64,000 nt of DNA from Saccharopolyspora phatthalungensis (GTDB taxonomy: Bacteria > Actinomycetota > Actinomycetes > Mycobacteriales > Pseudonocardiaceae), in the NCBI RefSeq assembly GCF_014203395.1, contig NZ_JACHIW010000002.1, forward strand, positions 930,001-994,000, read 5' to 3'. Positions within the stretch are counted from its first letter, which is position 1. Each line of letters opens with the position of its first letter. Positions 31,944-50,676 of this stretch are shown here, one piece after another. The position numbers and the translations under genes were made by a program. The notes below the pieces were generated by a model that was given only the letters and a program-made list of their open reading frames with translations, did not search any database and was not told the origin of the DNA.

Positions 31944-32966
31944 GTGAAAGCAATCGTCTTCGAGGCTCCGGAGCACGCCCGCCTGACGACCAAGGACATC
32001 CCCTGCCCCGGGGCGGGAGAGGCGCTGATCCGCGTTGCCTACAACTCGTTGTGCGGCAGCGATCTGTCGTTCTACCGCGGCGTGTGGCACGGCTTCACCT
32101 ATCCCGTCGTGCCCGGCCACGAGTGGAGCGGCACCGTCGTCGATGTCGCCGACTCCGGCCACGCCGACCTGATCGGTGCCCGGGTGGTCGGCGACCTGAC
32201 CGTGCCGTGCGGTGCCTGTCCGCCCTGCGCGCGCAGCAGCCCATCGCTGTGCGCCAACCTGCAGGAGTTGGGGTTCACTCGGGACGGGGGCTGCGCGGAA
32301 TACCTCACCATCCCAGCCGGAAATCTGCACCGGCTGCCGGACTCGGTGTCACTGCGTGCGGGGTGCCAGGTGGAACCCCTGGCGGTCGCGCTGCATGCCG
32401 CGGCCACGATCAACATTTGCCCCGGCGACCGGGTGGCCGTACTGGGAGCGGGCGGGATCGGCCTGCTGCTGGGGGAAGTGGCCAGATATCTGGGCGCGAC
32501 GGTCACGCTCGCGTCGGACCCGGTGCCGGAGCGCCGCGCCGTCGCGAAGGAAATGGGCGCCATCGCCGTCGCGGACGGATCGGCGGGCTCGCTGGCTGCC
32601 CTGGTACGTAAGCGCCCGGAGCTGGAGCCCGACGTGGTGCTGGAGGCTTCCGGTTACCCCGTCGCGGTGCAGGAAGCGATGGAGATCGCCCGGCCCACCG
32701 GCCGAGTCGGTCTGGTCGGCTACCGCATCGAGGAGACCAGTCCGATGACCCCCTGCCACGCCGTGCTGAAGGGCCTCACCTTACGCGGACTCATGGGCCC
32801 CGGCGGCCGGTTCGCCGAGGCGATCGACGTGATCGCCCTGGGAGCCGTGCGCGTCGAACCGTTGCTCAGTCACGAGTTCGGCCTCGATGACTTCGACTCC
32901 GCGCTCGACGTCGCGCTGCGCCGGGCGGATGCGAACACGCGCTCGGTGTTCAACATCGGCGACTGA
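31944..32966 (+). CDS. Zinc-type alcohol dehydrogenase; probable 2-deoxy-scyllo-inosamine dehydrogenase (Neo5/NeoA-like)
   Basis: 340 residues of the medium-chain dehydrogenase family. Catalytic zinc region: [12 protein letters not shown] and [10 protein letters not shown]; structural zinc cysteines: [18 protein letters not shown](P) loop: [14 protein letters not shown]. In 2-deoxystreptamine pathways that lack the radical-SAM enzyme BtrN, this enzyme oxidises 2-deoxy-scyllo-inosamine to the amino-ketone so that a second amino group can be added. The context (next two genes are the aminotransferase and the DOI synthase) supports that assignment strongly. GTG start at 31944, the first gene of the rightward aminoglycoside operon. 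The TTGACA at 31882 may drive it. Confidence 0.88.
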
Positions 32967-33084
32967 AACAGGCACCTTCGACACTCCACTATAGACAGTG
33001 CAGCGCCGGCCGTCCGCCGCCCGCGAGCAGCTGCACACCGCCGCCGCTTACCCAGCGGCCACGAATGTGAACCGGGAGTTCATC

Positions 33085-34377
33085 ATGCCCGCAACCAACT
33101 CCGTCGACACGGCGCTGGCTGTGCACGGCGGGCCCGCGCTCCGCACCCGACCATGGCCGGTATGGCCCCGATCCGCCCCGGGCACGGCGGCGGCGTTGGA
33201 CACCGTCCTGGGCTCCGGCCGGTGGGCGATCAGCGGCCCGTACCGCGGCGTGGACTCCTTCGAGCGACGGTTCGCCGCCGAGTTCGCCGCCTACCACGGG
33301 GTCGAGTACTGCGTCCCGGCCGCGAGCGGGACCGCGAGTCTGATGCTGGCCCTTGAGGCGTGTGGCGTCGGCGCGGGCGACGAGGTGATCGTTCCCGGAG
33401 TCTCCTGGGTGGCGTCGGCGTCCACGGTGGTGGGCGTCAACGCGGTCCCGGTTTTCGCCGACATCGAGCCCGACACGCTGTGCCTGGACCCCGCCGCGGC
33501 CGAGGACGCGGTTACCGAGCGCACGAAGGCGATCTGCATCGTCCATCTGTACTCGGCCGTAGCCGACCTGTCCGGGTTGCTCTCGGTGGCGCGACGGCGG
33601 GGCATTCCGATCATCGAAGACTGCGCGCAGGCCCACGGCGCGTCATACGCCGGCCGAAAGGTTGGCGCCTTCGGCGATGTCGGCACGTTCAGCATGCAGA
33701 ACAGCAAGGTACTCACCAGCGGTGAGGGCGGTGCGGCGATCACCTCCGATGCCGCGCTGGCTCGTCGGATGGAGCACCTTCGGGCGGACGGGCGCTGCTA
33801 TTCCGCGCGCCCGCCGGCACCGGGAGCCATGGAGCTGGTCGAAACCGGCGAGCTGATGGGCAGCAACCGTTGCCTGTCGGAGTTCCAGGCGGCCGTCCTG
33901 CTTACCCAACTGCCCGAACTCGACGGGGAGAACGCGTTGCGCGCGGCCAATGCGGCCCTGCTGGACCGGCGCCTGTCCGCGCTGGGCCTGCGGCCGCAGA
34001 GCACGTCCTCCCCCACCACGGAACGCACCTACTACACCTATGCTGTAGAGATCCCCCAGGAACTGCTCGCGGGAGCGGACATCGCCGCGGTGACCGCCGC
34101 GATCACCGCGGAGCTGGGATTCCCGGCGAGCCCGGCGTATGCGCCGCTACCCGCCAACCGACTCTACGCACCGGAGGGCCGGCCTCGCTACTCCCTCGGT
34201 GAAGAGCACCGGCGCAAGCTCGACCGGTCCCGCTTCCGGCTCCCCGTCTGCGATCGGGTGTGCCGCGGCCTGGTCACCCTCCATCACGCGGCGTTGCTCG
34301 GTGACGAGTCCGATGTGGACGATATCGCCGCCGCATTCGACAAGGTTCTGCGGCACACTCCCGCACTCGTGGGGTGA
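33085..34377 (+). CDS. L-glutamine:2-deoxy-scyllo-inosose aminotransferase (BtrS/Neo6-like)
   Basis: 430 residues. The sequence follows BtrS along its length as I recall it: WPVWPR near the N-terminus, [60 protein letters not shown], the PLP lysine in [14 protein letters not shown], and [20 protein letters not shown]. It makes 2-deoxy-scyllo-inosamine from the inosose and glutamine, and typically also the second amination that gives 2-deoxystreptamine. The ATG at 33085 follows GGGAG at good spacing; a farther in-frame GTG at 32998 would add an untypical tail. Next to the DOI synthase. Confidence 0.92.
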
Positions 34378-49379: not shown

Positions 49380-49428
49380 GGTTCCCACACATACCGGCAA
49401 AACCGTTGCATCACAAGGAGTTCATCGC

Positions 49429-50676
49429 ATGTCTAACCGAGTCGGCCTGGCCGAGCACCCCACCTGTCCCCGGCACATCGACGGCACGCCAAGGACGTTC
49501 GTGGCGGCTTCCGGAGCATATGTGACCGATGTGGACGGTGACACCTGGATCGACTTCGACAACGCCAGGGGTTCGGTGACGCTGGGACACGGTGATGACG
49601 AGGTCGCCAAGGCGGTCGCGGAAGCAGCCGCCGGCAAGCGGGGCGCCGCGACCGGATGGAGTCCGGCGCTGGACACGGTGCTGGACATGTTGCGCGAGCT
49701 CTGCGGCGGCGAAGCCGTCGCCCTGTTCCGCACCGGCACCTCGGCCTTGCGGGCTGCGGCGCTGTCGGTGCGGGAGGCCGTCGGCAAGCCACTACTGCTG
49801 AGCGCGGGCTACCACGGCTACGATCCGATGTGGTTCCCCGCCCCGGAACCGTTCACGCCGAACGAATCGGGCGTGGTGGACTTCTTCTTCGACCTCGACG
49901 TCCTGGCCGACCTGCTACGCACCCCGGACCGGGTGGCAGCGGTCGTCGTGTCGCCTGATCACCTGCACTTGTCGGAATCCTGGTACCGGACGGCGGGCCG
50001 GCTCGCGGCGGAGGCGGGGGTGCCGGTGATCGTCGACGAGGTCAAGGTCGGCCTGCGCTACCGGTCGGGGCTGTCCACCGCACATCTACTGGAACCGGCA
50101 GTGTGGACAGTCGCGAAAGGCATGGCCAACGGGGCGGCGGTGGCCGCCGTCGGAGGACGCGCGGCTCTTCTTGCCCCGATGGAGGACATCTCGTTCACCT
50201 CTTTCTTCGAGCCCGCCATTCTCGCCGCCGCGGAGGCGACCCTGACCCGCGTCGCAACGGGTGTTCCCACGGCGGTCATCGGCGACGCCGGCGCCACGTT
50301 CGTCGCGGAAGCCCGCCGCGCGCTCGTCGAGTCCGGAGTTCCGGTCAAGATCGTCGGTTCCGGTCCGCTTTTCCAGTTCGTGCCGGCGAACAAGGAGGTC
50401 AAACGGGAGTTCTACCAGGCCGCCGCCGCGGAGCGGCTGCTGTTCTATCGGGGCGACAACCAGGCTCCGTCCGCGGCCTTTACTACAGCGGTCATCGACG
50501 ATGCGGTGGCCCGTTTCAAGAAGGTGTGCGCCGAACTGTCGGGCCGCTGGCCCGCGACCGAGGTGGACGACGAGGCCCGTTACACCTCGGCCTGGGCCGT
50601 CATGGACGGCTTGGCCGAAGGCCCCCGCACTCGCGCGACAACGGCCGCACTGGTCGCGAAGTATCTCGACGACTGA
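49429..50676 (+). CDS. Class III PLP aminotransferase; probable 6'-oxo-paromamine/neamine aminotransferase (Neo18-like)
   Basis: 415 residues, fold-type I subgroup of ornithine/glutamate-1-semialdehyde aminotransferases. [28 protein letters not shown] (the Asp that holds the pyridine nitrogen) and the PLP lysine in [18 protein letters not shown]. It would convert the 6'-aldehyde formed by the GMC enzyme into the 6'-amine (neamine), and the 6'''-aldehyde in the fourth ring. ATG after AAGGAG. Last of the recognisable biosynthetic genes; a 255-base gap follows. Confidence 0.88.

What the first reader, a model, noticed from the sequence alone, without database searches (positions are those of the whole stretch)
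31944..50676. Neomycin/ribostamycin-class aminoglycoside cluster in a Saccharopolyspora-like genome
Fourteen genes follow the order I remember for neo5-neo18 of Streptomyces fradiae: dehydrogenase, aminotransferase, 2-deoxy-scyllo-inosose synthase, glycosyltransferase, two ABC halves, GMC oxidase, radical SAM, phosphatase, small protein, glycosyltransferase, deacetylase, PRPP enzyme, class III aminotransferase. The DOI synthase, BtrS-like and KanM1-like sequences match known proteins in long phrases. A complete four-ring set outside Streptomyces, next to a calerythrin gene, would be new to me.
Basis: partly seen in the sequence, partly recalled or inferred. Interest (0 to 1): 0.8.

Follow-up and report, generated by a model that had tools for sequence, protein, structure and literature searches.

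The report
Neomycin-family cluster split by transposon
A soil actinobacterium that is not a Streptomyces carries a nearly complete, divergent set of genes for making a neomycin-like four-ring antibiotic, interrupted by a recently arrived jumping gene and accompanied by a large, unstudied protein that looks like a phosphate-transferring enzyme.

Summary
Window 31944-50676 carries 14 genes in the order and orientation of neo5-neo18, 39-75% identical to Streptomyces clusters whose species are linked by mass spectrometry to neomycin B (S. albogriseolus) or paromomycin (S. catenulae). Key residues of DOI synthase and the NeoN-type epimerase are present. Both proteins branch outside the Streptomyces clades, so a recent import from there is unlikely.

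Neomycin or paromomycin type (C-6') is undecided. As a cluster this is a new member of a known kind; NeoA is the novel part.

The parts
27922..31578 (-). NeoA-like protein, 1218 aa: predicted ATP-grasp + phosphohistidine module at the N-terminus, mostly helical behind
   Evidence: 43-44% to a gene directly behind neo18 in S. albogriseolus, S. catenulae and UNOB3_S3; in CB02923 a 44% hit about 4.6 kb beyond neo18 on the opposite strand, cut by the end of the stretch fetched; 46 relatives in the protein search; no match in 99 of 100 related genomes, at most 6 candidates scored in each; structure; motifs
31944..32966 (+). neo5/NeoE-type zinc dehydrogenase (2-deoxystreptamine formation)
   Evidence: Pfam ADH; 62-67% to reference clusters
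33085..34377 (+). neo6/NeoS (BtrS-type) L-glutamine:DOI aminotransferase
   Evidence: PDB 5w70, L-glutamine:2-deoxy-scyllo-inosose aminotransferase, E 4.7e-191; NSK motif
34416..35561 (+). neo7/NeoC 2-deoxy-scyllo-inosose synthase
   Evidence: up to 64% to named DOI synthases; aligned to BtrC 2d2x with the lysine (LSLKQ) and the glutamate (LEYGH) present
35567..36829 (+). neo8/NeoM paromamine-type GT4 glycosyltransferase; its last codons lie in the IS element
   Evidence: 62-66% to reference clusters; C-terminus
36804..38663 (-). IS1182-family element (transposase 36975-38594, minus strand), CTAG on both sides
   Evidence: NCBIfam NF033551, 305 bits, cut-off 270; 11 matches in the genome, one with the same full score and one at 100% after rounding; ends
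38683..40455 (+). neo9-type ABC exporter half
   Evidence: Pfam ABC_membrane + ABC_tran; 53-55%
40452..42272 (+). neo10-type ABC exporter half
   Evidence: Pfam; 50-56%
42269..43885 (+). neo11/NeoQ GMC oxidase (C-6' / C-6''' oxidation)
   Evidence: Pfam GMC; 61-64% to four reference clusters, tree
43918..44817 (+). neo12/NeoN-type radical SAM C-5''' epimerase
   Evidence: 74% to S. fradiae protein; CX3CX2C at 26/30/33 and Cys250, the counterpart of NeoN Cys249; tree
44814..45446 (+). neo13/NeoP histidine-phosphatase-family protein
   Evidence: Pfam His_Phos_1; RHG motif
45460..45655 (.). dispersed ~195-bp repeat inserted between neo13 and neo14
   Evidence: 41 matches in own genome, itself included
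45671..45910 (+). neo14/NeoX small DUF6137 protein
   Evidence: Pfam PF19634; 50-55% in three of four reference clusters
45903..46889 (+). neo15/NeoF second glycosyltransferase (ring IV)
   Evidence: 53-55%; weak GT4 Pfam
46899..47612 (+). neo16/NeoD PIG-L deacetylase
   Evidence: Pfam PIG-L; HPDD
47607..49388 (-). neo17/NeoL phosphoribosyltransferase (ring III ribosylation)
   Evidence: Pfam Pribosyltran; PRPP-loop [10 protein letters not shown]; 39-44% by tblastn and the same inverted orientation in four reference clusters
49429..50676 (+). neo18/NeoB class III aminotransferase (C-6' / C-6''')
   Evidence: Pfam Aminotran_3; 60-62%

Best explanation
The region is a neomycin-family biosynthetic cluster for a 4,5-disubstituted 2-deoxystreptamine pseudo-tetrasaccharide. 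Inferred route, from the established functions of the homologues: glucose-6-phosphate to DOI (neo7), amination, oxidation and second amination to 2-deoxystreptamine (neo6, neo5), GlcNAc transfer and deacetylation to paromamine (neo8, neo16), C-6' oxidation and amination (neo11, neo18), PRPP ribosylation and dephosphorylation (neo17, neo13), second GlcNAc transfer, deacetylation and C-6''' amination (neo15, neo16, neo11, neo18), C-5''' epimerization (neo12), export (neo9/10). The NeoA-like protein (27922-31578) travels with this set; its N-terminus looks built to take phosphate from ATP onto a histidine, perhaps for transfer to an aminoglycoside, an intermediate or a partner (NeoX is a candidate). 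The cluster is a divergent non-Streptomyces lineage, and a recent IS1182 insertion between neo8 and neo9 may reduce expression of the downstream genes in this strain. Shown: gene content, order, homology, residues, trees, IS copies, predicted-fold match. Inferred: product, expression, NeoA activity, age.
Against: None of the 25 APH-family matches of the genome lies in the window, and there is no AAC(3)-family match. Of the 12 APH loci examined the nearest to APH(3') is unlinked, 33-34% identical, below the NCBIfam cut-off (180 against 205 bits). No counterparts of the other ORFs that my script called beside the reference clusters, regulator-like ones included. The IS may silence the operon. 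No product data. NeoA was matched to PDB by fold only: a sequence profile finds no dikinase, the window's Pfam PPDK_N hit is below cut-off (23.1 against 27), whole-model Foldseek gives nothing at E <= 0.001, and the Foldseek matches of the N-terminal model have low whole-length TM-scores (0.23-0.41 for the first 10 rows).
Confidence: 0.86

Rival explanations
1. Paromomycin-type product: C-6' keeps its hydroxyl and only C-6''' is aminated.
For: The gene set is the same for both; window NeoQ is 61.5% identical to the S. catenulae (paromomycin) enzyme and 62.9% to the S. albogriseolus (neomycin) enzyme.
Against: At sites where the two references differ the window sides with neomycin 47 times and with paromomycin 41 times: no decision. 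Only one labelled sequence of each kind was compared.
Confidence: 0.4
2. The cluster is silent or decaying: the IS insertion cuts the operon, and linked resistance and regulator genes are missing.
For: IS1182 between neo8 and neo9; no APH in the window, no AAC(3)-family match; in S. hirsuta only fragments of neo17 and neo18 were found, side by side, in the 32.6 kb examined.
Against: All 15 frames are open; the full-score identity to another copy says the insertion is recent; one of four reference clusters (CB02923) also shows no APH hit in the 35 kb fetched.
Confidence: 0.45
3. Ribostamycin- or butirosin-like three-ring product, the ring IV genes being idle.
For: Genes for rings I-III are complete; S. 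ribosidificus also has NeoN-like and NeoA-like proteins on record.
Against: The window NeoN keeps Cys250 (NeoN Cys249) and NeoF is intact, whereas the S. ribosidificus NeoN-like protein departs from the rest over much of the second half of the alignment.
Confidence: 0.08
4. NeoA is not a phosphotransferase but a scaffold or regulator that has kept an inactive dikinase fold.
For: No PEP/pyruvate domain was recognised; sequence similarity to dikinases is slight; large helical part of unknown fold.
Against: Motif residues (VRS, ED, NAG, D.EW, Q.R, EH) are invariant in 31 rows that include Pseudomonas and Paenibacillus proteins, which is not expected of a dead enzyme.
Confidence: 0.35

Closest known systems
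neo cluster (neomycin) of Streptomyces, here S. albogriseolus JCM 4616 (L089/L090)
   Same: Order and orientation of neo5-neo18; NeoA-like gene; epimerase
   Different: 39-75% identity only; the NeoA-like gene lies divergently upstream of neo5 instead of behind neo18; IS1182 and a dispersed repeat inside; no APH in the window
par cluster (paromomycin), S. catenulae NRRL B-2342 (L091/L092)
   Same: The same 15 genes at about equal distance
   Different: As above; the NeoQ comparison does not separate the two
tobramycin/apramycin-type loci (labels recalled): Streptoalloteichus L004-L006, L008; S. hirsuta L016
   Same: neo6-neo8 homologues at 59-70%, neo5 at 64-67% except in L016, where none was seen
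   Different: No NeoN, NeoF, neo9/neo10-type ABC pair or NeoA hit in the stretches held; no NeoL match in the Streptoalloteichus genomes, a fragment in S. hirsuta
Rifampin phosphotransferase (RPH) and pyruvate phosphate dikinase, for NeoA
   Different: 14-16% identity in those two alignments; no rifampin-binding or PEP domain recognised; long helical C-terminal part; substrate unknown

Membership tests
Neomycin-class 2-deoxystreptamine cluster | 2-deoxy-scyllo-inosose synthase with DOIS-type active site | tested here: met
   2d2x is the best PDB match, Lys and Glu present; the roles of Lys141 and Glu243 in BtrC are recalled
Neomycin-class 2-deoxystreptamine cluster | BtrS-type L-glutamine:DOI aminotransferase | tested here: met
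   5w70 E 4.7e-191
Neomycin-class 2-deoxystreptamine cluster | PRPP-dependent ribosylation enzyme (4,5-substitution) | tested here: met
   Pribosyltran domain, PRPP loop; 5 of 9 reference genomes have a match, one of them a fragment
Neomycin-class, four-ring subtype | Second glycosyltransferase NeoF | tested here: met
   53-55% to the four reference clusters
Neomycin-class, four-ring subtype | NeoN epimerase with CX3CX2C and Cys249 | tested here: met
   Cys26/30/33 and Cys250
Neomycin-class, four-ring subtype | Self-resistance aphA/aacC linked to the cluster or in the genome | tested here: not met
   None of 25 APH-family matches lies in the window, no PF02522 match in the genome; a distant, unlinked APH(3')-like gene exists. 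Not a strict requirement: PMC6804068 on lividomycin and on acetyltransferases outside the cluster (passages)
Neomycin proper (6'-amino) | NeoQ of the neomycin and not the paromomycin/lividomycin kind | tested here: inconclusive
   47 against 41 sites
Neomycin proper | Compound made | not testable with these tools
   needs fermentation and MS
PPDK/PEP-synthase/RPH dikinase superfamily (NeoA) | ATP-grasp (PPDK_N) domain with its motifs | tested here: met
PPDK/PEP-synthase/RPH dikinase superfamily (NeoA) | Phosphohistidine carrier domain with its His | tested here: met
   model aligned to PPDK up to residue 518; His364 in 31 of 31; Pfam PEP-utilizers in 3 of 31 at E 0.084 or worse; equivalence to the catalytic His by motif (recalled), not by superposition
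PPDK/PEP-synthase/RPH dikinase superfamily (NeoA) | Acceptor (PEP/pyruvate or drug) domain | tested here: inconclusive
   none recognised in Pfam or in the rows shown
IS1182 | IS1182 transposase and inverted ends | tested here: met
   NF033551 above cut-off; GTGGCTGGTGT at both ends

The most novel reading that the evidence does not exclude
NeoA is an antibiotic-cluster dikinase: with ATP it phosphorylates a histidine and passes the phosphate to neomycin-family intermediates (perhaps as a protecting group or inactive transport form, removed at export), helped by the small protein NeoX, a relative of which is fused to it in Photorhabdus. It would be an aminoglycoside-phosphorylating enzyme unrelated to the APH kinases, belonging to actinobacterial neomycin-family clusters and with relatives in Gram-negatives, and in this window the only candidate for self-protection besides the exporter.
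Probability: 0.35. Interest if true: 0.75.

Novelty: new member of a known kind. Interest (0 to 1): 0.52.

Why it matters
The cluster gives an outgroup to the Streptomyces neomycin/paromomycin clusters and shows which 15 genes are kept together over that distance. That core includes NeoA, a large protein for which the papers listed or read here gave me no function (listings, passages; not a full literature search). Its predicted ATP-grasp plus phosphohistidine build makes a concrete, cheap test possible: does a dikinase phosphorylate aminoglycosides during biosynthesis? If so, it might explain old reports of phosphorylated neomycins (recalled, not verified) and would reveal a second class of aminoglycoside phosphotransferase.

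Tried and rejected
Calerythrin as a cluster member: rejected. The locus 3.0-24.9 kb, or the part of it that fell in the 40-kb stretches fetched, is conserved in six genomes of the same genus; NeoA and neo5 queries found no counterpart there except a 33% dehydrogenase in G022. Recent import from Streptomyces: unlikely by the DOIS and NeoN trees. Deciding neomycin or paromomycin from NeoQ: no decision. Resistance by FmrO-type 16S methyltransferase: inconclusive, nothing rang even in the controls. NeoA sequence-profile match in PDB: none to a dikinase; whole-model Foldseek had no match at E <= 0.001. The Na+/H+ antiporter at 50743-52299 as a cluster member: not settled, the searches did not complete. 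Structured RNA in the 195-bp repeat: no Rfam match, folding z -0.97. NeoN survey: 2 of 22 genus genomes matched, but the second (E 8e-4, query residues 8-76) lies in the out-of-frame leader of my 399-aa query and is taken as chance; 1 of 295 Streptomyces genomes, the centre itself. The neo17 search in S. hirsuta gave only a fragment.

Full report
Observation. The 14 genes exist, in open frames, in the stated range. A scan of GTDB genome contigs for DOI synthase relatives found 147 and kept the best 80. tblastn of the window proteins against those 80 loci and 3 of the own genome found the neo-type run in L009 (Streptomyces sp. CB02923), L010 (S. catenulae), L012 (S. albogriseolus) and, cut by the contig end, L007 (UNOB3_S3); a NeoN-type gene was seen in 3 of the 83 loci. 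After fetching more of those contigs, all of neo5-neo18 was found in S. albogriseolus and S. catenulae in the same order, with neo17 on the opposite strand as here; CB02923 gave no neo14 hit, and UNOB3_S3 is split over two contigs. Best-hit identities over the four: neo5 62-67%, neo6 67-68%, neo7 60-63%, neo8 62-66%, neo9 53-55%, neo10 50-56%, neo11 61-64%, neo12 71-75%, neo13 46-50%, neo14 50-55% (three), neo15 53-55%, neo16 46-51%, neo17 39-44%, neo18 60-62%.

What the references make. PMC12498427 (passages) reports neomycin B from S. albogriseolus ISP-5003 and paromomycin from S. catenulae ISP-5258 by mass spectrometry. That the sequenced strains are the same isolates is my assumption. [quoted passage not shown] So a producer outside Streptomyces is not new in itself. 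A search for Saccharopolyspora with neomycin, 2-deoxystreptamine and gene cluster listed 7 papers, none of them about such a cluster by title (listing; of the 7 only passages of PMC6804068, on other terms, were read).

Key residues. DOI synthase aligns to BtrC (2d2x/2gru) over residues 21-368, with the lysine in LSLKQ and the glutamate in LEYGH present; in the dehydroquinate synthase 3zok the glutamate position differs. PMC10991966 (passages) gives Cys26, Cys30, Cys33 for the NeoN iron-sulfur cluster and Cys249 as hydrogen donor; the window protein has Cys26/30/33 and Cys250, shifted by a one-residue gap in the S. fradiae protein. Pattern matches for PIG-L HPDD, the PRPP loop, RHG, PLP-lysine contexts and Walker A in both ABC halves are present.

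Age and origin. In the DOI synthase tree (33 rows) the window and one unnamed 85% relative form a branch of their own, outside the 17-row Streptomyces clade (100/99) and apart from the Streptoalloteichus and Micromonospora groups. In the NeoN tree (26 rows) the window and an unnamed 91% relative stand outside a 7-row clade (100/100) of Streptomyces, Kitasatospora and one unnamed sequence. Among 22 genomes of the genus only the own genome has a convincing NeoN. In S. hirsuta residues 2-58 of neo17 and 306-415 of neo18 match side by side, and no other neo gene was found in the 32.6 kb examined: a relic of such a cluster. So the cluster may be old in this group and lost in most members; this is inference.

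Interruption. An IS1182-family element (36804-38663) lies between neo8 and neo9. The genome search found 11 matches, one with the same full score and one at 100% after rounding, so the insertion is young. CTAG stands on both sides here and in 10 of 11 copies in all; for L113 my script did not locate the right end. Whether CTAG is a target duplication or part of the ends I cannot say. The IS changes only the last residues of neo8. In S. fradiae the 12 genes neoE-neoD form an operon (PMC10991966, passage); the IS sits within the matching run, so it may cut transcription of the downstream genes. A second insert, a ~195-bp dispersed repeat with 41 matches in the genome, itself included (40 of 97 candidates scored), lies between neo13 and neo14.

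Resistance and regulation. Three of four reference clusters show an APH(3')-type gene within the stretch fetched; CB02923 does not in 35 kb (NCBIfam names those of S. albogriseolus and S. catenulae). None of the 25 APH-family matches of the genome lies in the window, and there is no AAC(3)-family match. Of the 12 APH loci examined (of 25) the nearest is on another contig, 33-34% identical and below the NCBIfam cut-off. Of the ORFs that my script called beside the reference clusters, only neo5, neo18 and NeoA found a match in the window. PMC6804068 (passages) notes that the lividomycin cluster has no reported resistance gene but the ABC genes, and that acetyltransferases can lie far from the cluster, so this does not exclude production.

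Verdict. A real, divergent neomycin-family cluster, new as an occurrence but not as a kind; possibly impaired by a recent IS; with one conserved partner gene whose predicted build makes a testable, more novel claim.

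Noticed in passing
window 45460-45655; copies in G000, L154 5376-5507: A ~195-bp dispersed repeat with 41 matches in the genome (itself included) and an 83% piece of 133 bp in S. hirsuta; three copies abut IS1182 copies (C1:5676876, C1:1551970, C1:3100278). No Rfam match, folding not better than shuffles.
   Followed up: partly
P0141, P0143, P0145, P0146, P0149, P0151; P0177, P0185, P0192, P0194, P0195: NeoN-like proteins (55-59%) in Paludibacterium, Photorhabdus, Sphingomonas, Xenorhabdus and Roseateles, and NeoA-like proteins (27-32%) in Photorhabdus, Paenibacillus and Pseudomonas: neomycin-like pathways may exist outside actinobacteria. 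Their gene neighbourhoods were not seen.
   Followed up: no
P0145 (Sphingomonas zeae): NeoN-like protein with KCDS where NeoN has the hydrogen-donor Cys249; it may not epimerize, or may use another donor.
   Followed up: no
L153 17645-18131 (S. hirsuta, G007:C10): Relic of a neo cluster: pieces of neo17 (N-terminal) and neo18 (C-terminal) side by side.
   Followed up: partly
window 3004-24853: Genus-conserved locus with two DegT aminotransferases, UbiA, AMP-binding, CoA-transferase, M20 peptidase, UDP-sugar dehydrogenase and calerythrin, not in the same gene order in all of six relatives: an unassigned biosynthetic locus.
   Followed up: partly
window 50743-52299: CPA2-type Na+/H+ antiporter right behind neo18; 47-52% relatives stand beside aminoglycoside-like loci of Actinokineospora (L018, L020, L040).
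   Followed up: partly
window 54651-56267: Match to TIGR04188, ATP-grasp peptide maturase methyltransferase, below its cut-off (309 against 380 bits), hinting at a graspetide-type locus downstream.
   Followed up: no
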